Source: Vulcanimicrobium alpinum | Lineage (GTDB): Bacteria; Vulcanimicrobiota; Vulcanimicrobiia; Vulcanimicrobiales; Vulcanimicrobiaceae | Reading direction: 5' to 3' | Assembly (NCBI RefSeq): GCF_027923555.1 | Contig: NZ_AP025523.1 | Coordinates: 3,444,364 to 3,508,363 of the forward strand | DNA length: 64,000 bases | Shown here: piece after piece, positions 10,815-31,274 of the stretch | Layout of the letters: each line of letters opens with the position of its first letter | How positions within the stretch are numbered: the first letter of the stretch is position 1 | Program-made: the position numbers and the translations under genes | The notes under the pieces: generated by a model | Databases searched by the model: none | Seen by the model: only the letters and a program-made list of their open reading frames with translations | What the model was told of the DNA's origin: nothing

Positions 10815-12179
10815 AGTCAAGTCCCAAATCTGCTGTAATTCCGGTTCGTCGATCGCGTAAGTTAGGCTGCTCGTCTGTCTCGTTTTACGGCGGCCGGCTT
10901 GGCCACCGTCGTTGCTTTCCATTCGAAGTATTCGGTCATGTCGAAGTAGGCTCGGCTTAACCATTCGTCGTTTTGCTCGGAGAGTAACGCGCCGACCATG
11001 CGAATCGCTGCGGCGTCGTTTGGGAAAATGCGAATGACTTTCTCCCGGCGACGAATCTCTTCATTGAGCCGCTCTTGCATGTTGCTCGTGCGCAGTCGCC
11101 GACGATATTTCTCCGGCAGCGGCAAGATCGCAAACATGTCTTCGAACGCTCCTTCCAAGCACACGCACGACTTCGGCGCTGTTTCTGCGAAGCGGGCCAT
11201 GAATTCCGCATATCGACGCTCAGCCTCTTTGCGATCAGTTGCGAGAAAGATCAGCCGAGCTGCAGCGGTTACGTTTTCGCGTTCTTTCTTGGGCGCGTGA
11301 TCGAGCAAGTTCTTCATCACGTGGAACTGGCAGCGCTGCCATGTCGCGCCGACGAATTGCTTGGCGATCGCCTCGCGTAAGCCCGAGTGATTGTCGGAGA
11401 CGGCAACGTCGACGCCGTGCAAGCCGCGTGCTTTGAGGCCGCGAAAGAACTCGTTCCACGTCGCAAAGCTCTCCGAATCGCCGATCGAAAGACCAAGGAT
11501 TTCTCGGTATCCGTCAGCGCGAATGCCGCTCGCGATGAGGAGCGCTTTGCTGACGACGCTCTTGTCGGTGCGCACCTTCGTAAAGAGCGCGTCAACGATG
11601 ATGAACGGGTACGCCGCATCAAGCCGACGATTCAAGAATCCCGCGACCGGCTCGTCAAGGGCCTTCGCGAGGCGACTGACCGTCGACTTCGAAAACGACG
11701 TCCCACACAGACCTTCGGTTATCCGCGTGACCTTCCGCGTCGAGACGCCGTTGACGACCATCTCCATCAGGCCCACGACAAAGGCTTGTTCGCTGCGGCG
11801 ATAACGCTCAAAGATGTCGGTTGAGAAGCTGCCGTCGCGCGTTTGCGGCACGCGCAGGACCAGCGATCCGACGCGGGTCGAGAGCTGTCGATCGCGATAC
11901 CCATTTCGATAGCCCTCCCGTTCTTGACAGCGTTCGTACCGCTCGGCGCCCAGATGATCGCGCATCTGCGCCTCGAGCACTTGGTTCAAAATCGTTTCGA
12001 CGAGCTTCCCGAGCGCCGCAGGTTGATCGAGCAACGCTGGAATCGCGTCGCGGGATAGGGTAAGATCGTAATCGGCCACCGTTCCGGTCCTTTCGATTGA
12101 AGTGTTGTCAACGTCAATCTTCGAACCGGAGCGGTGGCTACCCGCCCGCTGAATTTACATCAATTATAGGGACTCTGCC
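10815..12179 (-). mobile_element. IS256-family element A, copy A1 (complete)
   Basis: 1365 bp, with imperfect terminal inverted repeats (AGTCAAGTCCCAAAT... against GGCAGAGTCCCTATA...). It is flanked by the 8-bp target duplication GATCGTGA (10807-10814 and 12180-12187), so this is an undisturbed insertion. It is the reference copy for the other eight A elements. The left side lies in the ferredoxin/MBL gene remnant. Confidence 0.95.
10862..12079 (-). CDS. IS256-family transposase (A1)
   Basis: 405 residues, GTG start. DDE residues are placed at IIVDALFTK (D), VSDNHSGLREA (D) and QERLNEEIRRREK (E), with the family hallmark WQRCQFHVMKNLL (C/H region) between the second D and E. Mutator-type transposases excise by copy-out and generate 8-9-bp duplications, which is what this window shows. 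Intact, so potentially active. Confidence 0.95.
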   Translation of the reverse strand: MADYDLTLSRDAIPALLDQPAALGKLVETILNQVLEAQMRDHLGAERYERCQEREGYRNGYRDRQLSTRVGSLVLRVPQTRDGSFSTDIFERYRRSEQAFVVGLMEMVVNGVSTRKVTRITEGLCGTSFSKSTVSRLAKALDEPVAGFLNRRLDAAYPFIIVDALFTKVRTDKSVVSKALLIASGIRADGYREILGLSIGDSESFATWNEFFRGLKARGLHGVDVAVSDNHSGLREAIAKQFVGATWQRCQFHVMKNLLDHAPKKERENVTAAARLIFLATDRKEAERRYAEFMARFAETAPKSCVCLEGAFEDMFAILPLPEKYRRRLRTSNMQERLNEEIRRREKVIRIFPNDAAAIRMVGALLSEQNDEWLSRAYFDMTEYFEWKATTVAKPAAVKRDRRAA

Positions 12180-13836: not shown

Positions 13837-13918
13837 GCGACCGTTCGGCTACCCTTTCGTCTACCGTTTCGGGAAAACAGGTATCGTGGACCTGATAAAG
13901 CGTACAGAACCCATTACC

Positions 13919-14009
13919 TAGGCGGTGGGGTCCGCCTCACGAGATCGTGGAACCGCCGCTCGTCGGCCAATGACTCCTGTGCCGCTGCATGTGTGCTTAG
14001 GAGCTCCCG
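13919..14009 (+). promoter_or_regulatory. Fluoride riboswitch R1 (translational type) before the complex-I-like operon
   Basis: Core GGCGGTGGGGTCCGCC, then GGAACCGCC, then GGCCAATGACTCCT, the conserved crcB-motif order. The 3' segment ACTCCT (13973-13978) is complementary to AGGAG (13999-14003), the Shine-Dalgarno sequence of the first gene, whose ATG is at 14012. There is no T-run. Fluoride binding holds ACTCC in the aptamer and so should free the ribosome site. This differs from R2, R4 and R5, which have terminators. One aptamer base deviates from GGCGATG. Confidence 0.82.
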
Positions 14010-14011
14010 CG

Positions 14012-14974
14012 ATGACAGCTACCCTTCCGGCGCCGCTCGTCCAAATTTTTCAAGTCGCAGCGGCGCTTTTTCTCTCGCCGCTTCTGACCGGAGTCATCGC
14101 GCGTTGGGAAGCATTGGTCGCCGGTAAGCGCGGGCCCTCGGTTCTCCAAACGTACCGCGACATCGTCAAATTCTTGCGCAAGGCCTCGATTCGGCCCGAT
14201 GTTGCGTCGCCAGTTTTTCGCTATGCGCCGTACGTGGTCTGCGGGAGTTACGCGACGATCGCGACGCTCATCCCCGTGCTTACAACTTATCCGCTCCCGG
14301 GCGCTACCTACGGTGATATTCTCGCTGGCGCGTTTCTCTTTGCCCTAGGATCATTCGCAACGTCCCTTGCCGCTCTCGATTCGGGATCGCAATATGCGAA
14401 TATCGGTGCGAGCCGGGCAACGATGGTCGGGATATTCGTCGAACCGACACTCATTTTCGTCTTTTTTTCCGTCGCATTCATTAGCGGAACGGACTTGCCG
14501 TACGCGATGAATGCGCAATTGCGCGATTCATTGGCAAACGTTTTGAGACCGGCGCATGTTCTGGCGACTGCAGCATTCTTTCTCATGCTGCTCGTGGATA
14601 CCGGCCGTATTCCGATCGAGAGTTCATCGGCAACGACAGAGTTCGGGATGATCGACGATGCGCGGCTGTTTGAGCATACCGGTCCGGAGATGGCGCTATT
14701 CAAATGGGCCGGATCGATCAAACAATTTCTTCTCTACACTATTTTTATCAACGTTCTGCTCATTCCTCAAGGATTATCAACAGACGGCTCGGTAACGAGC
14801 GTAGCCTTCGCCCTGGTCACGCTCTTTCTAAAAATGTTGCTCGTCGGCGCGCTCGTAACGATCATCGACACGACTTTTGCGAAATTGCGGCTGTACCGCG
14901 TCGTCGAATTTATCGCGACGGGCTTGCTCGTCGCGCTTCTCGCGGTCGTCGCATACGTGGCCGGATTCGGATAA
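14012..14974 (+). CDS. Hydrogenase-4 component C / NuoH-like membrane subunit
   Basis: 320 residues, about eight membrane helices. Homologue of HyfC/HycD and complex I NuoH, the subunit linking the peripheral arm to the ion-pumping arm. Conserved segments: KRGPSVLQTYRDIVKFLRK, the acidic IGASRATMVGIFVEPTLIF, and DTGRIPIESSSATTEFGMIDD. The start ATG has AGGAG at 8 bases. First gene of a six-gene run in which each start overlaps or abuts the preceding stop, all behind riboswitch R1. Confidence 0.93.
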   Translation: MTATLPAPLVQIFQVAAALFLSPLLTGVIARWEALVAGKRGPSVLQTYRDIVKFLRKASIRPDVASPVFRYAPYVVCGSYATIATLIPVLTTYPLPGATYGDILAGAFLFALGSFATSLAALDSGSQYANIGASRATMVGIFVEPTLIFVFFSVAFISGTDLPYAMNAQLRDSLANVLRPAHVLATAAFFLMLLVDTGRIPIESSSATTEFGMIDDARLFEHTGPEMALFKWAGSIKQFLLYTIFINVLLIPQGLSTDGSVTSVAFALVTLFLKMLLVGALVTIIDTTFAKLRLYRVVEFIATGLLVALLAVVAYVAGFG

Positions 14975-14975
14975 G

Positions 14976-15641
14976 ATGCATACCTTATCTGTCCCCCAGG
15001 CTCTTGCCGGAAGCGTCGCTGTGGTTTTGCTGCTCGTGCAGCTCGCAATGCTTCGTTCGCTCGTTCTCGTTGAGTTGATCGCGCTGTACGCGTTACAATC
15101 GTTGCTCGTGGCGATTGTCTGTGCGACGGTCGGCGTTGTCGATGGCGCTTGGGATCTCATCTTTCTTGCGATCATAACGGTCGTGGTAAAAGCGTTTGCT
15201 CTGCCGCTGTACATGCGAGTCCTCTCGCACCGAGTATCGTCACGCGTCGAAATTCCGGCGCGTATCAATGTCACGGCTTCCTTGCTCATTGCCGCTGCGC
15301 TGATCGCACTCGCGATGACGACTGCCTCTCGGCTTCCTTTGCACGCGGGCGCCTTTCTGCCGTCGGCAAATCTTGCGACGACCCTCTCCATCGTTTTCGT
15401 CGGGTTTCTGATTGCCATTCTGCGGCCCAATGCGCTCGCGCAAGTCATAGCATTTCTGACGCTCGAAAATGGCCTTTTTTTCGGCACCGTAACCCTCGCG
15501 CCGGGGCTTCCGCTCGTTGTCGGAGTTTTGCTGCTCATCGATGTCGTCATCGCTGTCGTCGTCTTCGCCGTGCTCGTTCGCGTCATCGTCAACGAACGCG
15601 GTTCGATTGCGACGAGCTCGCTCGAAAGTTTACGCGGATGA
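14976..15641 (+). CDS. Hydrogenase-4 component E-like membrane subunit
   Basis: 221 residues, about seven membrane helices. Resembles HyfE, whose C-terminal part is NuoK-like. Conserved stretches: VVVKAFALPLYMRV and VIAFLTLENGLFFG, the latter with a membrane glutamate of the NuoK type. It begins one base after the TAA of the preceding gene and ends in an ATGA overlap with the next. Confidence 0.85.
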   Translation: MHTLSVPQALAGSVAVVLLLVQLAMLRSLVLVELIALYALQSLLVAIVCATVGVVDGAWDLIFLAIITVVVKAFALPLYMRVLSHRVSSRVEIPARINVTASLLIAAALIALAMTTASRLPLHAGAFLPSANLATTLSIVFVGFLIAILRPNALAQVIAFLTLENGLFFGTVTLAPGLPLVVGVLLLIDVVIAVVVFAVLVRVIVNERGSIATSSLESLRG

Positions 15642-17080
15642 ATCCGATTGTTGCCGCGATCGTTGCCATCCCCGGGATGCTCGCGATCGTGTGCCTTCTT
15701 TTGCCGTATACCGTGGGCCGTGCGTTGACGGCGGTCGGCGCCGTCGTTACAGCGATGCTCATCGCCATTGTTGCGGTGATGGTTTCGCAGCACCGAGGAA
15801 CCATCGATGCGCAGTCCACATTGTTTCTTCTCCCGCTCGGTATCGTGTATGCATGCGTGGGCATCTACACCGTCTGGTACGTCGAAGCGGAAGCGCATGG
15901 TTCCGATCGCGAGCGCTTCCGACGGGAGTTTCTGGCCCTAACGAATGCATTTGCGTTCGTCGAAGTCATCGTTCCGCTCGTGACAAATATGGCTGGCCTA
16001 TGGGTTGCGATGGAGGCGACGACGATCGTCGCTGCCTTGCTCGTTCGGTTGCAGGGCACGCCGGCTGCGCTCGAAGCTGCGTGGAAGTATATCCTCATTG
16101 CATCGTGCGGCCTCGGACTCGCGCTGGTCGCCGTCATCGTGCTCTATGCGGGTGGTACGGAGGCGCTCGGAACGCGGTACTCGCCTGATTGGGCCGCGTA
16201 TGTTTCGGCTGCGCGCCGACTGAATCCCGACGCCGTGCGCCTTGCGTTCCTGTTCGCACTTGTCGGCTTCGGAACGAAAATGGGACTTGCGCCCATGCAT
16301 ACCTGGCTTCCGGACGCTCATGGTGCCGGTCCAACGCCGACGAGCGCGATGCTTTCGGGCGTCGTCCTCAGCGACGCGCTCTACGCAATCTTACGGTTTG
16401 CCGCAATCACGAATGCGGCACTCGGACCGTCATACGCGCGTCACCTTTTTGCCGTGCTCGGTTTGCTCTCGCTCTTCCTCGCCGCATTCTTTCTCCTTCA
16501 GCAGCGCGATCTCAAGCGTATGTTTGCCTATTCAAGTATCGAGCACATGGGGATCGTCGCGACCGCGCTTTCGTTTTCGGCTCCGATCGCCGTCGCAGGA
16601 GCGATGCTTCATGTCGTTAATCACGCGGCCACGAAGTCGCTAGCATTTCTTGCAGCCGGTCGCATCGCGGAACGGTACGAGACGCGTGAAATCGCGGGCA
16701 TCCGCGGCGCGCTGGTAACACTCCCCGTCAGCAGCGCCTTTCTCGCGATTGCGGGCCTCGCACTTGCGGGCATGCCACCATTTGGAATGTTCCGGAGCGA
16801 ACTCATGATTCTCGTCGGCGGTTTTTCCAGCGCGCCTCTCAGAGCCGGAGCACTTCTCGTGCTGCTGGTCATTGCGTTTGCAGGCATCGTGCGCTGGATC
16901 GCGGCAGTCACGGGAGGAGCGCCGCCTGAGAGCATCGTTCGCGGAGAACGAGCAATATTTCCCATCATCGGAATGGCGCTGGGCGTGGTCATCGTGGTTG
17001 GCCTCGGCGTATACGTGCCGAACGTTCTTAAAGTGCTGATCTTTGGGGTCCAACATATCCTCGCGGGAAACGTCTCATGA
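15638..17080 (+). CDS. Hydrogenase-4 component F / Mrp-antiporter-type subunit
   Basis: 480 residues, 13-14 membrane helices. Homologue of HyfF and NuoN/NuoM. The ion-path residues of this family are present: the TM5 glutamate (LWVAMEATTIVAAL) and the TM7 lysine (FGTKMGLAPMHTWLPDAH). HVVNHAATKSLAFLAAGRI carries a further conserved His/Lys set. Starts in an ATGA overlap. Retention of these residues argues that ion translocation is under selection. Confidence 0.93.
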   Translation: MNPIVAAIVAIPGMLAIVCLLLPYTVGRALTAVGAVVTAMLIAIVAVMVSQHRGTIDAQSTLFLLPLGIVYACVGIYTVWYVEAEAHGSDRERFRREFLALTNAFAFVEVIVPLVTNMAGLWVAMEATTIVAALLVRLQGTPAALEAAWKYILIASCGLGLALVAVIVLYAGGTEALGTRYSPDWAAYVSAARRLNPDAVRLAFLFALVGFGTKMGLAPMHTWLPDAHGAGPTPTSAMLSGVVLSDALYAILRFAAITNAALGPSYARHLFAVLGLLSLFLAAFFLLQQRDLKRMFAYSSIEHMGIVATALSFSAPIAVAGAMLHVVNHAATKSLAFLAAGRIAERYETREIAGIRGALVTLPVSSAFLAIAGLALAGMPPFGMFRSELMILVGGFSSAPLRAGALLVLLVIAFAGIVRWIAAVTGGAPPESIVRGERAIFPIIGMALGVVIVVGLGVYVPNVLKVLIFGVQHILAGNVS

Positions 17081-18459
17081 ACGTCCTCTCACTCAGTGAA
17101 GCGCAGAATCTGATACGGGCGCGTCTGCGTTCCGGCTCGCGGTTCGTCAGTGCGTTTCTCGATGACACCCGCGAAGGTCGGATCGTTCGTTACGTCTTAG
17201 CGAACGAGCGGCACCTCGAACCGTATGCCGCCATGCTGGAAGAACCGCTTCCAACGCTCACCGACATCACGCCCGCTGCGGCTTGGTACGAGCGTGAACT
17301 CCGCGACATCGACGGAATTTCCGTGTGCGGCGAGCTCGACGGTCGGTCCCTCGATCCGACCGTTTCGGAACCCGTTCGCCGCTCGGCATCTTCCGAAGTC
17401 TCAACCGTTCTGTATGGCCCCGTGCGCTCGGGCATTTCCGAATCGGCGCGCTGGCTTATCGAAACCGCCGGTGAGGATTTCCTGGGCGTTCAGGCGACGA
17501 TGTTTTACAAGCGTCGCCGAATTGAAGCCCGATTCATTGGAGTGGCGCTCGATCTCGCGCCGTTTATCGCCGAACACGTTTCGGGCGCGACCGCAGCCAG
17601 CCATGCGAGTGCGTTTTCCCGAGCGTGTGAGGTCGCACTCGAGATCACCATACCAAATCGAGCGCGCGCTGCGCGGGGCGTCCTCGTTGAGTTCGAACGG
17701 ATTCACCAGCATCTCGACGTGCTAGCGAAACTCGCTGACGATGCGTCGCTCGCCGTTGGGGCTGCGCAAACGTTCGCGCTCAAGGAACGCGTGCATCGTT
17801 TTCTTGCAGCAGCGACTGGAAATCGTTTTGCGCGGGGGTGCGTTGCGATTGGCGGGGTTCGCGACGATCTAATCCCTGCGCTGCGGCGCGAAGCTGCGCG
17901 GTCGCTTGACGACCTCGAACGCGATATCCTTGCGGTCGTTGCGACGCTGTTCGAAACCCCATCGCTGACCGATCGACTGATCGGAACCGGACATCTTTCC
18001 GCAGAAACCGTCGTACGCTTTGGCGGTGTTGGGCCGGTTGCCCGAGGAAGCGGCGTCTCATGCGATGCACGCACGCGGGACGGTTGGCTCTCAACCCCGC
18101 TCGAAGGTGATGAGGCACTCGAACGTGCGGGAGATGCCTTTGCCCGCGCGAGCGTCCGACGGCGCGAAATTCGTCGGGCATTCCGACTGATTCGAAATGC
18201 ACTCGACGGGGCAAGTGAAGGGCCTCATCGGGTCGAGACGCCGCTGCGCAGCGGTATGGGCTACGCGCGCGTCGAGTCACCGCAGGGTGAACTTGTATAT
18301 TTCGTTCGCATCGACGACGGTCTCCAGCGCGTTGCGATTCGATCCGCGACCTTTGCGAACTGGCCGCTCTTTGCGCTGTCCCTTCCCGGAAATATTTTCA
18401 CGGATTTCTCGTTTGTCGAGCACTCGTTCGGAGCAATCCAGGCAGAGAGCGATCGATGA
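17077..18459 (+). CDS. Hydrogenase-4 large-subunit (NuoCD)-like protein lacking Ni ligands
   Basis: 460 residues. The N-terminal NuoC-like domain has ITPAAAWYERELRDIDGI. The NuoD-like domain has FERIHQHLDVLA and TGNRFARGCVAIGGVRDD. In [NiFe] group 4 enzymes the Ni cysteines lie in CGIC and DPCxSC. Here the first motif reads EHVSGATAASHASAF and the second TDFSFVEHSFG, so all four cysteines are absent. The quinone-site histidine of NuoD is also missing (GPVRSG instead of GPxHPA). It cannot bind a NiFe centre; it keeps only the scaffold. Related to Ehr-type (energy-converting hydrogenase related) subunits. Confidence 0.9.
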   Translation: MNVLSLSEAQNLIRARLRSGSRFVSAFLDDTREGRIVRYVLANERHLEPYAAMLEEPLPTLTDITPAAAWYERELRDIDGISVCGELDGRSLDPTVSEPVRRSASSEVSTVLYGPVRSGISESARWLIETAGEDFLGVQATMFYKRRRIEARFIGVALDLAPFIAEHVSGATAASHASAFSRACEVALEITIPNRARAARGVLVEFERIHQHLDVLAKLADDASLAVGAAQTFALKERVHRFLAAATGNRFARGCVAIGGVRDDLIPALRREAARSLDDLERDILAVVATLFETPSLTDRLIGTGHLSAETVVRFGGVGPVARGSGVSCDARTRDGWLSTPLEGDEALERAGDAFARASVRRREIRRAFRLIRNALDGASEGPHRVETPLRSGMGYARVESPQGELVYFVRIDDGLQRVAIRSATFANWPLFALSLPGNIFTDFSFVEHSFGAIQAESDR

Positions 18460-19196
18460 ACCGATGGTTCTTGCGCGGCTTGCGCACGGGAATTGTAACG
18501 ACCCGTTTTCCAAGCGGAATCGATGCGATGCCAGCCGGATGGCGCGGTCGCGCGGTATGCCAAGAAGGCGCTGATGCGCAATCGATTGCGCGCGCCGCCG
18601 CCGTCTGTCTGAGTGGTGCGATCGAGGAACGAAGCGGTGCGGTTGATGTCGATCGCTGTTTCCAGTGCGGTGAGTGCGCCCGCATCACGCCGCGAGCTTT
18701 CGCGATGTCAGCAGAGTTCAATCTCGCTCATTTCTCCGCCGACCCGACGGAGGAGCGAGCGCGCTTACGCGAGCGCGTGCGCTCGCTTGGAAAATCGATC
18801 ATGATTCGGCACATCGATGTCGGGAGCGACTGCTCGGAGGATCAGGAAATGCAGGCGCTCTTCAACCCGTACTATGACGTGACACGGCTCGGCATCTTTC
18901 TTACCGCATCGCCCAGGCACGCCGATCTCCTCGCTGTCACCGGTGCGGTGACCGGAGCGATGGCGGAACCGCTGCGGCGCACGTATGATGCAATGCCGGA
19001 ACCGAAGGTCGTCGTCGCCGTTGGTACGAGTGCGGCGTCGGGCGGAATCTTCGCCGGAAGCCCGGGAATAATCGGCGCGGTCGAGCGGGTGATTCCGGTC
19101 GACATCGCAATCCCGGGTTCGCCTCCGCCGCCGCTCGCCATCATCGCGGGCTTATGGCTCGCACTCGGGCGCATCCCGCCGGTTGCATGCAGATGA
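18456..19196 (+). CDS. Fused ferredoxin-like and HyfI/NuoB-like subunit lacking the N2-type cluster ligands
   Basis: 246 residues. The N-terminal part (LRGLRTGIVTTRFPSG) looks like HycF/HyfH. Its cysteines C51, C68, C71 and C74 could hold one [4Fe-4S] cluster, while the second cluster's ligands are gone. The C-terminal part is NuoB/HyfI-like (DVGSDCSEDQEMQ, VVVAVGTSAASGGIF, VDIAIPGSPP). The canonical cysteines in GSCxxC, GxCAxSGG and PGCPP are replaced by Asp, Glu, Ser and Ser, leaving no proximal cluster. Fusion of the two subunits and loss of the cluster are both unusual. ATGA overlaps on both sides. Confidence 0.88.
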   Translation: MNRWFLRGLRTGIVTTRFPSGIDAMPAGWRGRAVCQEGADAQSIARAAAVCLSGAIEERSGAVDVDRCFQCGECARITPRAFAMSAEFNLAHFSADPTEERARLRERVRSLGKSIMIRHIDVGSDCSEDQEMQALFNPYYDVTRLGIFLTASPRHADLLAVTGAVTGAMAEPLRRTYDAMPEPKVVVAVGTSAASGGIFAGSPGIIGAVERVIPVDIAIPGSPPPPLAIIAGLWLALGRIPPVACR

Positions 19197-21193
19197 CGGC
19201 GCCGTTCTCAGCGCTCATCGCTGCCGGGCTTGCGTGTCTCGCGGGTGCCGCGATCTCGGCCTTCGTTCGCGTGAAGTTTGCGCGATCGGTAGCGTTCGCG
19301 CTCCTGACCCTCGCGGGTTCTGCGGCATGCGTAGCAGCGGTCCTGGCTCTGCGGAGTGCTGCTCATGCGATATCATTCGGCAATCATATTGCGTTGCGGC
19401 TTGATGGGCTCGCGGGATTTTTCGTGCTCGTACTCGGCCTTGTCGCGACGCTGACCGCGCTGTTCGCGTGCGGTCGCCGACGCCGCAATGAACGCGGGCT
19501 CGGTTTGCATGCCTCGGGCAGCGCATGCACGATCCTCTTCGCATCATTGCTCGCCTGCAGTGCCGATGATGTGTGGCTCTTTCTCTTCGGCTGGGAACTC
19601 TTGGCGCTTGGTTTTGGTTGGGCGATTGCGTTTGCGGGTGAACGCGAGAACGCCGATCGTGCGGCGTATTTCACGCTTGTAATCACCCATGCGGCGGGTG
19701 CAGCGCTGCTGGGAGCGCTACTTATTCTCACCGTCCATTCTGGTTCGCGCGTCAGCGATGTGGCCGTCGGGTGGGCGCACCTCTCGCCGCAGATGGCGGG
19801 ACTCGTGTTCGTCGGGTTGCTGGCAGGTTTTGGAGCGAAGATCGGCATCTTTCCCCTACAGGGGTGGATGCCGTACGGATACCCGGCGGCACCCGGGCCC
19901 CTTGCCGCCCTCATGGCGGGCGGTGCGCTGAACGTTGGCTTTTACGGACTCGAGCGCTTCGTCGTTTCAGCGCCCGTCGCGGTACCGACGTGGTGGTCCG
20001 TCCTGGTGCTTGCTCTAGGCGCGTTCGGTGCCATCCTGGGAGTCATGTGGGCGCTCGCGCAGCGCGATATGCGGATGCTCGCTGCGTTTTCGAGCGTTGA
20101 GAACGCTGGCATCATCCTCGTGGGCATCGGTGTCGCGCTGGCGGGGCGCGCCGTTTCGCAACCGTTTCTGGTGGGCTTTGGGTTAGCGGCGGCGGCCGTT
20201 CAAATTCTTGCTCACGCGATCGCGAAATCGACGCTCTTTCTTGTCATCGGAGATGTCGATGACGCGACTGGGTCGACATCTTTCGATCTACTCGGCGGAC
20301 TATGGCGACGGCTTCCGGTGAGTACGACTGCGGCAACCGCTGCTGCCCTCTCGCTTGCCGCACTGCCGCCATTCGGGGGCTTTGCCGGCGAGTGGCTCTC
20401 TCTTGAGGCCACGATGCAGGCCTTTCGAACGGCGTCATTGCCGCTCGAAATCGCTCTCGCTGTCGCCGGGGCAGCAATTGGACTCGCGGCGGGTGCGGCG
20501 GTCGTCGCATTCGTGAAAACCGTCGGCATCGGATTTCTCGGCGCGGCACGCTCACCAGGTGCCGAACATGCATCGGGCTCGAAAAGTATGCTCACCGGTC
20601 TCGCGTACGCGGGTCTCGTGATCGCCTCGGTCATCGTTGGCAGCTGGACCCCGACCGTGCTCAACCTCATCGCGCCAGCGATCGATTCCATCGCACGCGT
20701 GGCGACGGTCGCGGCGATGATTCACGATGCGCCCCTCGTTCAGCCGCCGTTCCCAGGTTTTTCGTCAGTCTCGGGAATGGGTCTCGTCGGAACTGCACTC
20801 GCCTTCGCCCTTGGCTTCCGCATCCTGGTCGCTTTGATTCGGCGACCAGTCTCGCGCAGCGAAGCGCCTTGGACGTCAGGAAACCGCTATTATGCTTGGA
20901 CGCAATATTCCGGCACGGGATTTGCAAATGCGAGTCGCGTTGTGCTCGATATTGTCACGCGGGTCGTGCGCGAAACGAGCGGGGATGTCGCGGGAGACGG
21001 CAATTTACGCTACGAGAGTCGGGCTCGTCCATTCGCGGATCTGCCGCTAGCGATCGCGCTCGCTTCCGGATTCCTCCGTCTCTCAACGCTCGTTCGAAAG
21101 ACGCAGTCCGGATTCATTGCTGTATACCTCTCGTACATCTTAGCCTTTATCATCGCACTGCTTTTCATATACCCCTTGCTCCGCCTCTGGTAG
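19193..21193 (+). CDS. Hydrogenase-4 component B / NuoL-type subunit
   Basis: 666 residues, about 16 membrane helices. Homologue of HyfB and NuoL. Ion-path residues are kept: FLFGWELLALGF (TM5 Glu) and FGAKIGIFPLQGWMPYG (TM7 Lys), with AHAIAKSTLFLVIGD further on. The ATG at 19193 overlaps the preceding stop (ATGA); an in-frame upstream start at 19154 is less likely. In hyf operons this gene usually comes first; here it is last. Confidence 0.92.
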   Translation: MTAPFSALIAAGLACLAGAAISAFVRVKFARSVAFALLTLAGSAACVAAVLALRSAAHAISFGNHIALRLDGLAGFFVLVLGLVATLTALFACGRRRRNERGLGLHASGSACTILFASLLACSADDVWLFLFGWELLALGFGWAIAFAGERENADRAAYFTLVITHAAGAALLGALLILTVHSGSRVSDVAVGWAHLSPQMAGLVFVGLLAGFGAKIGIFPLQGWMPYGYPAAPGPLAALMAGGALNVGFYGLERFVVSAPVAVPTWWSVLVLALGAFGAILGVMWALAQRDMRMLAAFSSVENAGIILVGIGVALAGRAVSQPFLVGFGLAAAAVQILAHAIAKSTLFLVIGDVDDATGSTSFDLLGGLWRRLPVSTTAATAAALSLAALPPFGGFAGEWLSLEATMQAFRTASLPLEIALAVAGAAIGLAAGAAVVAFVKTVGIGFLGAARSPGAEHASGSKSMLTGLAYAGLVIASVIVGSWTPTVLNLIAPAIDSIARVATVAAMIHDAPLVQPPFPGFSSVSGMGLVGTALAFALGFRILVALIRRPVSRSEAPWTSGNRYYAWTQYSGTGFANASRVVLDIVTRVVRETSGDVAGDGNLRYESRARPFADLPLAIALASGFLRLSTLVRKTQSGFIAVYLSYILAFIIALLFIYPLLRLW

Positions 21194-21203
21194 AAGAGAT
21201 CGC

Positions 21204-21596
21204 ATGTTTTCTCACATCGTGCTCGCCTGGGATGAATCGAATGCTGCGCGACATGCTGCAGATTACGCCTTCGTGCTTGCGGAAAAATTCGGTTCGCGCA
21301 TCGACATTGTCAGCGTGCCTGCGCTTGAAGAAAATGCTGCGTTGGCTCTGACACTAGAGGCATTGCGAATCGAAGCCGAGCGCCGTGGACTGCAGACGAC
21401 GCGTGTCGTCGTTATGCCAGCCGATGTGAAGCCAGAGAGCGCGATCGTGAAACACGCCTATGATTCCGGAGCCGATGTGATAGTGATCGGTCATCGCCCG
21501 CTCGATCCGCTCGAACGTTTCATCGTAGGAAGCGTTTCGGAACGGGTTGTGCGGGCGGCGCCGTGTGCGGTCCTTTCGGTCGCTGGCTCCGAGTGA
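21204..21596 (+). CDS. Universal stress protein (UspA family)
   Basis: 130 residues, single Usp domain. IVLAWDESNAARHAADYA is the N-terminal strand/helix. The C-terminal VIGHRPLDPLERFIVGSVSERVVRAAPCAVLSV has the G-2x-G-9x-G(S/T)-like nucleotide-binding region in degenerate form (the first G is followed by HR). It starts 10 bases after the membrane complex operon and is probably its last gene, so it shares fluoride control. Confidence 0.85.
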   Translation: MFSHIVLAWDESNAARHAADYAFVLAEKFGSRIDIVSVPALEENAALALTLEALRIEAERRGLQTTRVVVMPADVKPESAIVKHAYDSGADVIVIGHRPLDPLERFIVGSVSERVVRAAPCAVLSVAGSE

Positions 21597-21662: not shown

Positions 21663-21673
21663 AAACGAAGTGA

Positions 21674-21739
21674 CGGCGATGGAGTTCGCCATAACCGCTG
21701 TCCACAGCTGATAACCCCTTACTTTCGTGAGGGGTTTTT
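21674..21739 (+). promoter_or_regulatory. Fluoride riboswitch R2 with terminator
   Basis: Aptamer GGCGATGGAGTTCGCC, ATAACCGCTG, then CAGCTGATAACCCC. The last segment begins a 10-bp terminator stem (21713-21722 with 21727-21736, loop TTTC) followed by a T-run. This is the classical fluoride-ON attenuator: fluoride sequesters the 5' arm and allows read-through to the NUDIX gene at 21789. Confidence 0.92.
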
Positions 21740-21788
21740 CTATGATCAAGCGTGGTATCCACGGGACATTTCCGAAAGAATCCGCAGC

Positions 21789-21957
21789 ATGAGCATGGAG
21801 CGGTCGAACGTCACGTTTGCACTCCGGGTTGCTGCCATCATTCGCGACGAGCGCGACCGGATATTGGTGGTCCGGGAGCATATCATCGGGATCGAGCAAT
21901 GGACCTTACCCGGCGGGGCGCTACTGCTTGGCGAGTCGCTCGTTCTTGCGCTCGAAC
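21789..21957 (+). pseudogene. NUDIX hydrolase, N-terminal half
   Basis: 57 residues remain from the ATG at 21789: ALRVAAIIRDERDRILVVREHIIGIEQWTLPGGALLLGESL. The start of the Nudix box (GGALLLGES for GxxxxxE) is present. The remaining REUxEExGU part was removed when IS256 copy A2 inserted. It would have been a riboswitch R2-controlled hydrolase. Confidence 0.75.
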
Positions 21958-23322
21958 GGCAGAGTCCCTATAATTGATGTAAATTCAGCGGGCGGGTAGC
22001 CACCGCTCCGGTTCGAAGATTGACGTTGACAACACTTCAATCGAAAGGACCGGAACGGTGGCCGATTACGATCTTACCCTATCCCGCGACGCGATTCCAG
22101 CGTTGCTCGATCAACCTGCGGCGCTCGGGAAGCTCGTCGAAACGATTTTGAACCAAGTGCTCGAGGCGCAGATGCGCGATCATCTGGGCGCCGAGCGGTA
22201 CGAACGCTGTCAAGAACGGGAGGGCTATCGGAATGGGTATCGCGATCGACAGCTCTCGACCCGCGTCGGATCGCTGGTCCTGCGCGTGCCGCAGACGCGC
22301 GACGGCAGCTTCTCAACCGACATCTTCGAGCGTTATCGCCGCAGCGAACAAGCCTTTGTCGTGGGCCTGATGGAGATGGTCGTCAACGGCGTCTCGACGC
22401 GGAAGGTCACGCGGATAACCGAAGGTCTGTGTGGGACGTCGTTTTCGAAGTCGACGGTCAGTCGCCTCGCGAAGGCCCTTGACGAGCCGGTCGCGGGATT
22501 CTTGAATCGTCGGCTCGATGCGGCGTACCCGTTCATCATCGTTGACGCGCTCTTTACGAAGGTGCGCACCGACAAGAGCGTCGTCAGCAAAGCGCTGCTC
22601 ATCGCGAGCGGCATTCGCGCTGACGGATACCGAGAAATCCTTGGTCTTTCGATCGGCGATTCGGAGAGCTTTGCGACGTGGAACGAGTTCTTTCGCGGCC
22701 TCAAAGCACGCGGCTTGCACGGCGTCGACGTTGCCGTCTCCGACAATCACTCGGGCTTACGCGAGGCGATCGCCAAGCAATTCGTCGGCGCGACATGGCA
22801 GCGTTGCCAGTTCCACGTGATGAAGAACTTGCTCGATCACGCGCCCAAGAAAGAACGCGAAAACGTAACCGCTGCAGCTCGGCTGATCTTCCTCGCAACT
22901 GATCGCAAAGAGGCCGAGCGTCGATATGCGGAATTCATGGCCCGCTTCGCAGAAACGGCGCCCAAGTCGTGCGTGTGCTTGGAAGGAGCGTTCGAAGACA
23001 TGTTTGCGATCTTGCCGCTGCCGGAGAAATATCGTCGGCGACTGCGCACGAGCAACATGCAAGAGCGGCTCAATGAAGAGATTCGTCGCCGGGAGAAAGT
23101 CATTCGCATTTTCCCAAACGACGCCGCAGCGATTCGCATGGTCGGCGCGTTACTCTCCGAGCAAAACGACGAATGGTTAAGCCGAGCCTACTTCGACATG
23201 ACCGAATACTTCGAATGGAAAGCAACGACGGTGGCCAAGCCGGCCGCCGTAAAACGAGACAGACGAGCAGCCTAACTTACGCGATCGACGAACCGGAATT
23301 ACAGCAGATTTGGGACTTGACT
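21958..23322 (+). mobile_element. IS256-family element A, copy A2
   Basis: Full 1365 bp. The flanks do not match (GCTCGAAC before, GACCTATT after), so one side was replaced after insertion. It joins the NUDIX fragment to DNA that originally belonged to the neighbourhood of 36.5 kb (see inversion). Confidence 0.93.
22058..23275 (+). CDS. IS256-family transposase (A2)
   Basis: 405 residues, identical in length and nearly identical in sequence to the A1 protein; all DDE residues present. Intact. Confidence 0.93.
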   Translation: MADYDLTLSRDAIPALLDQPAALGKLVETILNQVLEAQMRDHLGAERYERCQEREGYRNGYRDRQLSTRVGSLVLRVPQTRDGSFSTDIFERYRRSEQAFVVGLMEMVVNGVSTRKVTRITEGLCGTSFSKSTVSRLAKALDEPVAGFLNRRLDAAYPFIIVDALFTKVRTDKSVVSKALLIASGIRADGYREILGLSIGDSESFATWNEFFRGLKARGLHGVDVAVSDNHSGLREAIAKQFVGATWQRCQFHVMKNLLDHAPKKERENVTAAARLIFLATDRKEAERRYAEFMARFAETAPKSCVCLEGAFEDMFAILPLPEKYRRRLRTSNMQERLNEEIRRREKVIRIFPNDAAAIRMVGALLSEQNDEWLSRAYFDMTEYFEWKATTVAKPAAVKRDRRAA

Positions 23323-28345: not shown

Positions 28346-28898
28346 CTACCAGCAGACCTTCATCGACACCTATGCGAAGGTGGGCGTCGCGAAGCTCTAT
28401 TTGGACAAGACACCAATCACTGCGGCCGACCTGCTCAACGATCGCGTGTTACCGCTATACGAAGAGTACGGGATTACGTTGCAACGGATCCTGACCGACC
28501 GCGGCACGGAGTTTTGCGGGCGTGAGGGACATCCGTACGAGCTCTACCTGGCGATCGAAGACATCGACCACACCCGAACGAAGGCACGCCATCCGCAGAC
28601 CAACGGCATCGTCGAGCGTTTTCACAAAACGATGCTTGATGAGTTTTATCGGATCGCGTTTCGCAAGACGATCTACACGTCGCTCGAGCAACTGCAGCGG
28701 GACCTCGATGCGTGGACCGAGGAGTACAACACGCAGCGTCCGCATCAAGGACGCTGGTGCTACGGCAAGACGCCGATGCAGACATTCGTCGACAGTGTCT
28801 CCCTTGCGAAAGAGAAACAGATCGCTTAGACTGAAACCCAACCTATCTGACACTACCGCAAGATCGTACGACTGTCAGATCACATAGTAGCTAGTACA
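28346..28898 (+). mobile_element. IS481-family element C, copy C3 (3' half)
   Basis: Begins in the middle of the transposase (CTACCAGCAGACC) and runs to the 3' terminus TAGCTAGTACA. Carries the last 160 or so transposase residues only. Abuts the truncated CFA synthase gene. Confidence 0.9.
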
Positions 28899-29990
28899 GC
28901 GCCAGAAATTGCGCGCACTGCCAGCCATATAGATCTTCCAGATACGATACGTGCGCTCGTCGGTCGCAGCAATAACATTGTCGCAGCTCGCTTCGAGATT
29001 TTTGTGCCAGGCGCGTAGAGTTCGAGCGTAGTGTTCGCGGAGATTCTCGACGTCGCGGACCTCGAATCCAACCCTCCCTGCAGCACGGAGTATCGTCTCA
29101 ATGCTCACGAGGTCCCCGTCCGGAAAGACGTATCGGTCCATGAAGCCGCTCGCGCGACAGCCTCTGCCATCGCGACTCTGCTGAGCGATCCCGTGGTTGA
29201 GAAAAAGTCCGCCTTTGCGAAGTGCATCGAATGCGGTGTGGAAATATACTTGCAGCCGCTCTCGGCCGACATGTTCGATCATTCCAACGCTGACGATCTT
29301 GTGAAAGGTCTCGCCGCGCAAATCACGATAGTCGCGTAATTCAACGCGAACCCGATCTCCGACGCCCGCCTGGGCGATGCGTCGCTGAGCTTCTTCATAC
29401 TGCAGGCGACTCAACGTTACGCCAAGGGCCTCAGCACCGAATTGCTGCGCGGCACGCAGAACGAGGGCTCCCCAACCGCAGCCGATATCAAGTAGACGTT
29501 CCCCCGGACGTACCCGAAGTTTTCGTAATGTGTGATCGATCTTTGCGACCTGTGCATCGTCGAGTGTTTGCACGCCCTCGTCCCAGTAGCCGCATGAATA
29601 AACCATTCGCGAGTCAAGAAAGCTACGGTAGAATTCGATCGGCTGATCGTAGTGAAATCCGATCGCCGCCGCATCACGCTGTTTTGAGTGCCGCTTTCCG
29701 TGGAGTTGCGCTTCGTGCCGCGACGCTCGCGGTACGTTCGGCAGACGCATGAGCTGCGCGATCAGACGAGGCAGTGTGAGGCGAGGTAAGATCTCGAGCG
29801 CATTTTCAATCGCGTCGATCACCAACTCGATATCGCCGTCGATGTCGATCCATTTCTCGACGAACGCCCGCCCAGGGCTCAAGTCCAGCGGCGGAGCAAA
29901 TGCTGCTCGCAGGGCGAACGGTTCATTGATGAACAGCGTGAAGTGTGCGTTCTCGGTTGCTGGCACGCGCGTGCCATCCCAAAGTTCCAC
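28899..29990 (-). pseudogene. cfa: Cyclopropane-fatty-acyl-phospholipid synthase, C-terminus lost
   Basis: SAM-dependent enzyme that cyclopropanates membrane unsaturated fatty acids. N-terminal domain (WDGTRVP, FALRAAFAPPLDLSPGRAF), then HYDQPIEFYRSFLDSRMVYSCGYW, SAM motif RLLDIGCGWGALVLRAA, and VGMIEHVGRERLQVYF. The gene is cut after SARNFWR by IS481 copy C3, losing the last few dozen residues. Coding similarity continues in frame upstream of the GTG at 29990 (RTLFGRDFARTFAVELW) to about 30080, so the true start is further up and not obvious. Directly downstream of riboswitch R4 on the same strand. Confidence 0.85.
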
Positions 29991-30099
29991 CGCAAAAGTG
30001 CGCGCGAAATCTCGACCAAATAATGTTCGCAGAATCGCGACGGAGCGATCTGCGGCGCTTCTTTTTCCAGCCGCTATTAGAAATCGCTGTTGGAGGGGT

Positions 30100-30173
30100 A
30101 AAATAGAAACGCTCCCGCTATAACGCAGGAGCTATCAGCCCAAAACGGGCGGTTAATGGCGAGCCCCATCGCC
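30100..30173 (-). promoter_or_regulatory. Fluoride riboswitch R4 with terminator, before CFA synthase
   Basis: On the minus strand: GGCGATGGGGCTCGCC, ATTAACCGCC, GGGCTGATAGCTCC. The last bases start an 8-bp terminator stem (30111-30118 pairing with 30125-30132, loop GTTATA), followed by a T-rich tract. Near-ideal crcB motif. Confidence 0.93.
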
Positions 30174-30187
30174 AAATTTTTTTTTCG

Positions 30188-30216: not shown

Positions 30217-30404
30217 TCGAGTGCTCGTTAATGGTGAAGGGCGGTGGGCTGGCACTGCCCGCCTCCTCACTGAATCTATCGTGCGCTCGAGGGGATCGAG
30301 AGGCATCTCGAAGACCGGCATTCGTGAGTTGGACTGCTCGTGAGTTTTGGCTGAAGGGATGCGGACAGCTTCTGAAAGAATCGTCGCCTGAGGACCTGGT
30401 TTGA

Positions 30405-30487
30405 AGGTGGTGGAGTCCGCCTGCAGCGATCGTCTGCGAACTGCCGATTTCGGCCAATGACTCCTGGCGCGTGCTAGGAGTTTTTTG
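30405..30487 (+). promoter_or_regulatory. Fluoride riboswitch R5 with terminator, before DUF190-crcB-MFS
   Basis: GGTGGTGGAGTCCGCC, then GAACTGCC, then GGCCAATGACTCCT. ACTCCT (30460-30465) pairs with AGGAGT (30476-30481) to form a terminator followed by six T. Divergent from R4, 230 bp away. Confidence 0.9.
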
Positions 30488-30522
30488 TTTTCCGGCACAC
30501 TTTTTTCGCGAGACATCAATCT

Positions 30523-30885
30523 ATGAACGATGAAACGGCCAAGGCGTATCCGTACCGTCCTGCTTTGCGAGTGAGTATCTATATCGGCGAGCGCGACCAC
30601 CACGCCGGACAGCCGTTATATACGGCAATTGTCGAGCTAGCACGCAAGCTTGGAATCGCCGGAGCGACGGTTCTTCGCGGAATCGAAGGCTACGGTGCTG
30701 ATGCGGTGGTGCATTCCGCGAGCATCGTCGACCTTTCATCGAATCTTCCGTTGATCGTGGTCGTCATTGATGAACTTCCGAGGATACAAACGTTCATCTC
30801 GACGGTCGCCGACATGCTGGTCGATGGAATGATGACCACGGAAGAGCTTGAGATCGTCGATCATAAGCACGGAAAGATTTTGTGA
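30523..30885 (+). CDS. DUF190 protein, copy 2
   Basis: 120 residues: LRVSIYIGERDHHAGQPLY, ATVLRGIEGYGADAVVHS, LPLIVVVIDELPRIQTFIS. Its stop overlaps the crcB start (TGATG), so the two are translated together under R5. The pairing of DUF190 with crcB is widespread; the protein may modulate the channel, which is inference. Confidence 0.9.
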   Translation: MNDETAKAYPYRPALRVSIYIGERDHHAGQPLYTAIVELARKLGIAGATVLRGIEGYGADAVVHSASIVDLSSNLPLIVVVIDELPRIQTFISTVADMLVDGMMTTEELEIVDHKHGKIL

Positions 30886-31274
30886 TGGATCCACGCGCGA
30901 TGCTTGCTGTGGGAGCGGGCGCCGCAATTGGGGGTGTCGGTCGACTCCTGGTGACGGAGGCGGTCGTTGCACGGGTAGGAGCCGGATTTGGGCATTATGC
31001 CACGTTTTTCATCAATGTTTCCGGTGCATTCCTCATCGGTGTCGTGCTCGCTCTCGCGCAATCCCGCACGGAATTTAATCCGCTCTTGCGATTGTTTTTA
31101 GCGACGGGAATTCTTGGCGGCTACACGACCTTCTCAACATTCTCATTCGAGGTGTTCAATCTGGCAACCGGCGGATTCGTGCTTACCTCGATTGTATATG
31201 CTGTAGGGAGTGTCGCGCTGGGCGTTATCGCCGCGTTTCTCGGCGTGACGCTCGTGCGCGCGATCGGTGTATAA
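30885..31274 (+). CDS. crcB: Fluoride channel CrcB/Fluc
   Basis: 129 residues, four membrane helices, exports F- passively as an antiparallel dimer. Family motifs: IGGVGRLLVTE (GGxxRy), FFINVSGAFLIG (the N of the central Na+/pore region), and GILGGYTTFSTFSFE (Phe box and TTFST). The ATG at 30885 is taken over an upstream GTG at 30882. Preceded by GGAAAG and a fluoride riboswitch, which fixes the function. Confidence 0.97.
   Translation: MDPRAMLAVGAGAAIGGVGRLLVTEAVVARVGAGFGHYATFFINVSGAFLIGVVLALAQSRTEFNPLLRLFLATGILGGYTTFSTFSFEVFNLATGGFVLTSIVYAVGSVALGVIAAFLGVTLVRAIGV

What the first reader, a model, noticed from the sequence alone, without database searches (positions are those of the whole stretch)
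14012..21596. Fluoride-controlled complex-I/hydrogenase-4-like membrane complex without a redox centre
Seen: five subunits homologous to HyfC, E, F, G and B and a fused HyfH/HyfI-like subunit, plus UspA. The large subunit has EHVSGATAAS and TDFSFVEHS where the Ni-binding CGIC and DPCxSC should be. In the small subunit the four [4Fe-4S] ligands are D125, E128, S192 and S222. Only one possible ferredoxin cluster remains (C51, C68, C71, C74). TM5 Glu and TM7 Lys of both antiporter subunits are kept. Known: group 4 [NiFe] hydrogenases and complex I need these ligands; genes annotated as formate hydrogenlyase subunits have been reported behind fluoride riboswitches. Inference: an ion-translocating machine uncoupled from H2 or quinone chemistry, used to manage H+ or Na+ (and so HF entry) under fluoride stress.
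Basis: partly seen in the sequence, partly recalled or inferred. Interest (0 to 1): 0.95.

Follow-up and report, generated by a model that had tools for sequence, protein, structure and literature searches.

The report
Fluoride-switched complex-I relative, redox core lost
Behind a predicted fluoride-sensing RNA lies an intact set of genes for a membrane complex related to respiratory complex I and hydrogenases that lacks all the cysteines that would hold nickel and the neighbouring iron-sulfur cluster, so it likely moves ions to help cells survive fluoride rather than making or using hydrogen.

Summary
Confirmed, and wider than the finding claimed. Window 14012-21596 encodes HyfC-E-F-G-I-B plus UspA behind a fluoride riboswitch (13912-13986). 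The small subunit lacks all four proximal-cluster cysteines. One N-terminal [4Fe-4S] motif is invariant, so "without a redox centre" is not literally true. It is not decay: 0 of 91 close homologues carry CCCC; dN/dS is 0.04-0.28 in the closest pair.

In this phylum, C-E-F-G-I-B operons have the riboswitch upstream in 25 of 26 testable cases, other operons in 0 of 36. On plasmids, at Rfam's cut-off: 6 of 6 against 0 of 7. One archaeon shows it too. None of 32 riboswitch-linked large subunits has the four cysteines. So the "formate hydrogenlyase" that reviews list in the fluoride regulon is, in every copy tested here, not formate hydrogenlyase.

Likely role (inferred): an Mrp-like H+/Na+ translocator defending pH and membrane potential against HF. 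Known kind: Ehr complexes; the fluoride-linked lineage is a new variant.

The parts
13912..13986 (+). Fluoride riboswitch aptamer (RF01734), G6-C38 variant with an insert, 26 nt before HyfC
   Evidence: 35.4 bits, cut-off 34; G6-C38
14012..14974 (+). HyfC / NuoH-like membrane subunit
   Evidence: PF00146, E 1.5e-30; FHL subunit 4, E 4e-39
14976..15641 (+). HyfE-like membrane subunit
   Evidence: NF008556, E 7.9e-19, below its cut-off; no Pfam hit
15638..17080 (+). HyfF-like antiporter subunit
   Evidence: PF00361, E 4.2e-50
17077..18459 (+). HyfG-like large subunit (30 kDa + 49 kDa parts), no Ni ligands
   Evidence: PF00346/PF00329; columns 169/172/454/457 = S,T,I,E; model nearest to FHL HycE
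18456..19196 (+). Fused ferredoxin-like + HyfI/NuoB-like small subunit, proximal-cluster cysteines replaced
   Evidence: PF13370 + PF01058; D125/E128/S192/S222; C51/C68/C71/C74 kept
19154..21193 (+). HyfB-like antiporter subunit (start uncertain, overlaps HyfI)
   Evidence: PF00361, E 2.8e-39
21204..21596 (+). Universal stress protein
   Evidence: PF00582; also follows HyfB in 8 of 12 type A operons incl. this one
21666..21977 (+). Second fluoride riboswitch (21666-21727) and the front part of a NUDIX gene (from about 21786)
   Evidence: 44.2 bits; NUDIX profile 3-50 of 134
28875..30182 (-). Fluoride riboswitch (30119-30182 -) before a cyclopropane fatty acid synthase-like gene (28875-29990 -)
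   Evidence: 59 bits; PF02353, E 6.7e-90
30397..31274 (+). Variant fluoride riboswitch (30397-30473) before DUF190 (30523-30885) and CrcB (30882-31274)
   Evidence: 29.9 bits, below cut-off; PF02641 and PF02537

Best explanation
This is an intact six-subunit Ehr-type relative of complex I and group 4 hydrogenase, lying behind a predicted fluoride riboswitch, that has lost all [NiFe] and proximal [4Fe-4S] cysteines and would therefore likely work as an Mrp-like H+/Na+ translocator that defends cytoplasmic pH and membrane potential under fluoride. Shown by sequence: the gene set and order C-E-F-G-I-B, loss of the ligands, invariance of the membrane-arm charged residues and of one N-terminal [4Fe-4S] motif, homology of the RNA to RF01734, and purifying selection. 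Inferred: (1) fluoride binding to the aptamer turns expression on, in some operons perhaps by freeing a Shine-Dalgarno sequence that pairs with the aptamer's CTCCT strand; (2) with no proximal cluster there is no electron path to the old active site, so ion movement is driven by existing ion gradients rather than redox; (3) this offsets the acid load and loss of potential caused by HF entry and so sustains the force that drives F- out through CrcB; (4) the remaining cluster and the rebuilt Ni pocket have a structural or gating role.
For: Riboswitch directly upstream here and upstream of 25 of 26 testable C-E-F-G-I-B operons in the phylum against 0 of 36 others; plasmid replicate 6 of 6 against 0 of 7 at Rfam's cut-off; archaeal copy, only riboswitch of its genome. 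No Ni cysteines in 13 type A, 18 type B (three partial), 91 close and 120 Actinomycetota-type sequences. No proximal-cluster cysteine set in 13 of 13 type A loci. Quinone-site columns (Nqo4 H38/Y87, recalled) hold S121/G170. Membrane-arm charges invariant in type A. dN/dS 0.04-0.28. Same islands carry CrcB, DUF190, enolase, inorganic diphosphatase, MutS, Cfa. Review: HF entry lowers pmf and internal pH, Na+/H+ antiporters are the next most common riboswitch-linked class after exporters, Fluc uses membrane potential (PMC11139923, passages).
Against: No transport, fluoride response or structure of the complex was measured. A four-cysteine [4Fe-4S] motif is kept in every type A locus, which is odd for a machine with no redox role. 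Type B and the Burkholderiales operons keep the proximal cluster, so a redox-free mechanism cannot hold for the whole lineage without argument. Mrp antiporters manage without peripheral subunits, so keeping both here needs a reason. In the window the predicted anti-Shine-Dalgarno pairing is only 5 bp and not above shuffles (p 0.35). Many type A riboswitches score below Rfam's cut-off.
Confidence: 0.5

Rival explanations
1. A redox-driven ion pump with an unknown acceptor: electrons enter at the one ferredoxin-type cluster and reduce something at or near the rebuilt pocket, so the complex is a primary pump.
For: The four ferredoxin cysteines are invariant (13 of 13 type A loci; 120 of 120 listed homologues). 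Type B and Burkholderiales relatives behind the same riboswitch keep the proximal cluster.
Against: Type A has no proximal cluster, no Ni ligands and no quinone-site His/Tyr at the expected columns (residues recalled). The distance from the outer cluster to the pocket is expected to be too long without the proximal cluster (recalled, not measured).
Confidence: 0.25
2. A fluoride- or HF-binding machine: the rebuilt Ni pocket binds fluoride and couples it to the antiporter arm, exporting F- or sensing it.
For: Dedicated fluoride link. Invariant or nearly invariant polar pocket residues E166, H167, S169, T172, H176, D443 in the close family and E457.
Against: No direct evidence of fluoride binding; the islands already carry CrcB; the pocket residues differ between lineages, as a shared fluoride site would not predict.
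Confidence: 0.1
3. A decaying or merely hitch-hiking operon carried in a fluoride island without a fluoride role of its own.
For: The island is rich in transposase genes and the neighbouring NUDIX gene is cut short.
Against: Intact frames, dN/dS well below 1, a family of 91 clusters with fixed motifs, its own riboswitch, and recurrence behind riboswitches in several phyla.
Confidence: 0.06
4. A true formate hydrogenlyase or hydrogenase, as database names say.
For: Names such as 'formate hydrogenlyase subunit 5' are given to relatives by one source; the fold is closest to FHL HycE.
Against: 0 of 32 riboswitch-linked large subunits have the four Ni cysteines, while 33 type C rows do. The likely source is an aerobe (PMC9758169, abstract).
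Confidence: 0.01

Closest known systems
Ehr complexes (energy-converting hydrogenase-related)
   Same: Group 4 hydrogenase architecture without the Ni/Fe-coordinating residues (definition: PMC6349859 and PMC10284858, passages)
   Different: Gene order C-E-F-G-I-B, fluoride riboswitch, fused ferredoxin-HyfI, and in type A no proximal cluster; other Ehr operons seen here lack the riboswitch
Formate hydrogenlyase / hydrogenase 4 (Hyc/Hyf)
   Different: No Ni ligands, no proximal cluster
Mbh and respiratory complex I
   Same: MbhJ/MbhL and NuoD/NuoB homology
   Different: No N2-type cluster, no quinone-site His/Tyr at the expected columns
Mrp Na+/H+ antiporters
   Same: HyfB and HyfF match Mrp A and D subunits; a non-redox use of the same arm
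   Different: Mrp has no large/small peripheral subunits (recalled)
Fluoride-resistance islands, e.g. Enterobacter cloacae FRM GI3
   Same: Fluoride riboswitch with crcB, uspA, eno, ppaC (PMC5533749, abstract and passages)
   Different: The six-gene operon named there has no complex-I-like genes

Membership tests
Group 4 [NiFe] hydrogenase / FHL | Four Ni-binding cysteines (two CxxC) | tested here: not met
   S169, T172, I454, E457; 0 of 91 close homologues CCCC
Group 4 [NiFe] hydrogenase / FHL | Proximal [4Fe-4S] cysteines in the small subunit | tested here: not met
   D125, E128, S192, S222; 0 of 13 type A loci CCCC
Group 4 [NiFe] hydrogenase / FHL | HyfB/C/E/F membrane arm | tested here: met
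Complex I (NDH-1) | Quinone-site His and Tyr of the 49 kDa subunit (positions recalled) | tested here: not met
   S121 and G170 against the NuoD-like row L118
Complex I (NDH-1) | N2 cluster cysteines | tested here: not met
Ehr complexes | Related to group 4 hydrogenase but lacking the Ni/Fe-coordinating residues | tested here: met
   definition from passages
Ehr complexes | Coupling of a cytoplasmic redox reaction to charge translocation (suspected in print) | not testable with these tools
   PMC6349859, passage
Mrp antiporters | No large/small peripheral subunits (recalled) | tested here: not met
   HyfG and HyfI present
Fluoride riboswitch regulon | RF01734 at or above the gathering score just upstream | tested here: met
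   35.4 against 34 bits, 26 nt before HyfC
Fluoride riboswitch regulon | Expression rises with fluoride | not testable with these tools

The most novel reading that the evidence does not exclude
A whole complex-I-type machine, peripheral arm included, that runs without any redox chemistry: the dead Ni/quinone cavity, rebuilt around E166, H167, S169, T172, H176, D443 and E457, binds a non-redox ligand (H+, a cation, or fluoride itself) whose binding gates or drives the antiporter arm, making this a fluoride-dedicated ion machine of bacteria and at least one archaeon, long mislabelled formate hydrogenlyase.
Probability: 0.25. Interest if true: 0.95.

Novelty: new variant of a known kind. Interest (0 to 1): 0.87.

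Why it matters
[quoted passage not shown] In every riboswitch-linked copy that I could test the catalytic cysteines are gone, so for these the label is a misannotation; the real partner would be an ion-translocating complex, which fits the known pH and membrane-potential cost of fluoride. I did not see the sequences behind the original list. If the type A complex works without redox, it is a natural complex I with the core site removed, in which the open question of how the peripheral arm talks to the antiporter arm could be tested without electron transfer. The likely source organism, Vulcanimicrobium, is in culture.

Tried and rejected

Led nowhere or against the reading: the sister archaeon G150 shows no riboswitch (L143), but its contig ends before the place where it should lie. 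L086 (type B) has none in 620 nt upstream nor by Rfam at E 5. L100's was seen only by pattern. In L053, L054 and L058 Rfam's clear hit is a farther one, in front of a small gene; the near one scores 20.5 and 21.2 bits in L053 and L054 and is not found in L058, where only the pattern sees it. In Alicyclobacillus (L122) a riboswitch precedes a lone HyfG; no other subunit was found convincingly within 21 kb. The anti-Shine-Dalgarno idea has 8-11 bp in L052, L055, L056, L058, L080 and L100 but is no better than shuffles in the window and many others. L124 (other gene order, no riboswitch) has also lost the proximal cysteines (T-D-E-S), so that loss is not special to the riboswitch lineage. Apart from Mycobacterium branderi, the genomic context of the Actinomycetota-type homologues is unknown: genome contigs allowed one scan. 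Structure models came without coordinates, so pocket distances were not measured.

Paper searches. Apart from the passages cited, I saw listings only, and no listed paper described a Ni-less complex behind a fluoride riboswitch. Subscription papers are mostly not held; I did not look up the original fluoride riboswitch paper.

Selection: of the matches I fetched 12 type A loci of other genomes, all 58 others down to E 1.2e-31 and two weaker ones; weaker matches were not fetched. Loci L007-L014 appear to be the same contigs as some of L048-L059 (contig lengths agree) and were not counted again. The pattern was fitted on type A/B sequences. Twelve operons were dropped from its counts because upstream DNA was not held (1 A, 4 B, 7 C). 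The six plasmid operons with a riboswitch include two pairs that look nearly identical. The 13 plasmid operons compared are 12 of the 30 listed among 85 records with a HyfC match, plus L124, which like L122 was found through HyfG.
Full report
WHAT IS THERE. The window is bases 3444364-3508363 of a single-contig 3.508 Mb genome. Its middle (about 12-56 kb) has 0.57-0.62 GC against 0.70 at the edges, so the operon sits in an island. All six fluoride-riboswitch matches of the whole genome at E<=0.001 fall in this window; three pass Rfam's cut-off. The seven genes are intact and tightly packed, four pairs overlapping. [quoted passage not shown] Erebus (PMC9758169, abstract and passages). This identification is inference from size, G+C and the names of homologues.

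MEMBRANE ARM. In the type A loci (12 or 13 per subunit) these charged residues are invariant: HyfF E126, E146, K150, K214, H228, K333, E388; HyfB E148, K229, H354, K358, E413, K455; HyfC E144, E210; HyfE K72, E92, E164, D189. Their assignment to translocation helices is recalled.

NOT DECAY. Between the closest pair (L048, L050) dN/dS is 0.25 for HyfG, 0.28 for HyfI and 0.04-0.12 for the others; the other three pairs have dS above 1 or undefined. Type A is one clade (SH-aLRT 100). Type A, ten distant homologues, type B and the archaeal copy form one group of 41 rows (99) apart from type C (quick tree, with long branches flagged by the tool).

RIBOSWITCH LINK IN THE PHYLUM. Of 149 genomes, 131 have a HyfG match at E<=1e-10 and 13 have type A. 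In up to 620 nt held upstream of the first gene, a fluoride-riboswitch core was found in 12 of 12 type A operons, 13 of 14 type B (the archaeal copy counted here) and 0 of 36 others; not testable: 1, 4 and 7. Fisher p for A+B against the rest is 1.8e-16, with a pattern fitted on A/B. By Rfam alone (E<=1e-4, same strand, within about 560 nt) it is 11 of 12 for type A and 10 of 13 for bacterial type B, with none anywhere in the type C stretches. Many type A riboswitches are below the gathering score: the near ones of L057 (23.9 bits), L053 (20.5) and L054 (21.2) are weak, and that of L058 is not seen by Rfam. Nine type C loci have no Ni cysteines either and no riboswitch, so the link belongs to the C-E-F-G-I-B lineage, not to Ni loss as such. 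The window's own genome has another copy elsewhere (L092) that reads CCCC and has no riboswitch.

REPLICATE OUTSIDE THE PHYLUM. On plasmids, the six best-listed HyfC matches (43-46% identity) all have a riboswitch at Rfam's cut-off upstream. They are Mycobacterium branderi (a NUDIX gene in between), Burkholderia multivorans, two B. cenocepacia and two Caballeronia. Order C-E-F-G-I-B was read in full in four of them; the stretches of L145 and L146 end inside HyfG. Seven operons of order B-C-E-F-G-I have no riboswitch in 12.8-17.3 kb. Neighbours of the riboswitch-bearing operons include CrcB, DUF190, enolase, inorganic diphosphatase, MutS and Cfa. In a euryarchaeal MAG the only riboswitch of the genome precedes the operon. 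M. branderi also lacks the proximal cluster (N-D-D-A); the three Burkholderiales copies read keep it. All 13 plasmid operons, with or without riboswitch, lack CCCC at the Ni columns (two read at the first pair only).

COUNT BEHIND '0 OF 32'. 12 type A + 13 type B operons with a riboswitch + 7 plasmid records (six operons and the lone HyfG of L122), each read at the Ni columns; L145 and L146 only at the first pair.

MECHANISM. A review states that HF entry lowers the proton-motive force and internal pH, that Na+/H+ antiporters are the next most common riboswitch-linked class after exporters, and that Fluc channels use the membrane potential (PMC11139923, passages). [quoted passage not shown] A complex-I-type membrane arm without a redox core, in an island with CrcB, fits an H+/Na+ translocator. 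That step, and expression by fluoride, are inferred. A redox role through the one remaining cluster is the main rival, and is stronger for type B, which keeps the proximal cluster.

WHAT IS KNOWN. The crcB RNA before 'formate hydrogen lyase' genes dates from 2010 (PMC2864571, passage) and is repeated in PMC8004769 and PMC11139923 (passages). Ehr complexes without Ni ligands are known, function open (PMC6349859, PMC10284858, passages). I saw no paper joining the two in the listings. The best label is a new variant of Ehr complexes.

Noticed in passing
window 13912-13986 and 30397-30473; upstream of HyfC in L048, L050, L051, L052, L055, L056; L049 13370-13447: A variant fluoride aptamer: of 42 extracted, 31 have A6-U38, 9 have G6-C38 and 2 mix. 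The G-C form is about 10-14 nt longer and also precedes DUF190-CrcB in the window. Position numbers follow the T. petrophila aptamer as recalled.
   Followed up: partly
window 28875-30182 (-): A cyclopropane fatty acid synthase-like gene has its own strong fluoride riboswitch (59 bits; PF02353); a cfa gene also lies beside crcB in the Burkholderia multivorans island L123.
   Followed up: no
P0160-P0241; Mycobacterium branderi plasmid, L120: A large set of homologues, with Actinomycetota names on the large-subunit side, has D-E-D-S (71 of 120) where the proximal cluster ligands should be, perhaps a carboxylate site in place of the cluster.
   Followed up: partly
between riboswitch and HyfC in L054, L058, L083, L088: A small charged ORF of about 110-150 residues, 39-74% identical among the four, lies just before HyfC; L053 has an unrelated small ORF there.
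   Followed up: partly
window 21666-23275 and 10862-12079: A riboswitch-linked NUDIX gene is cut short just before a 405-residue transposase-like ORF that is also present at 10862-12079 on the other strand.
   Followed up: no
L052, L054, L055, L056, L058, L091, L104 and others: Single stretches hold several fluoride riboswitches each, up to seven on one contig of G109 within 16 kb, before NUDIX, MutS-V, metallophosphatase, dynamin-like and unknown genes.
   Followed up: partly
L122 9513-11215 (Alicyclobacillus sp. ALC3 plasmid): A lone HyfG-like gene directly behind a fluoride riboswitch, with CrcB and DUF190 nearby but no convincing other subunits within 21 kb.
   Followed up: partly
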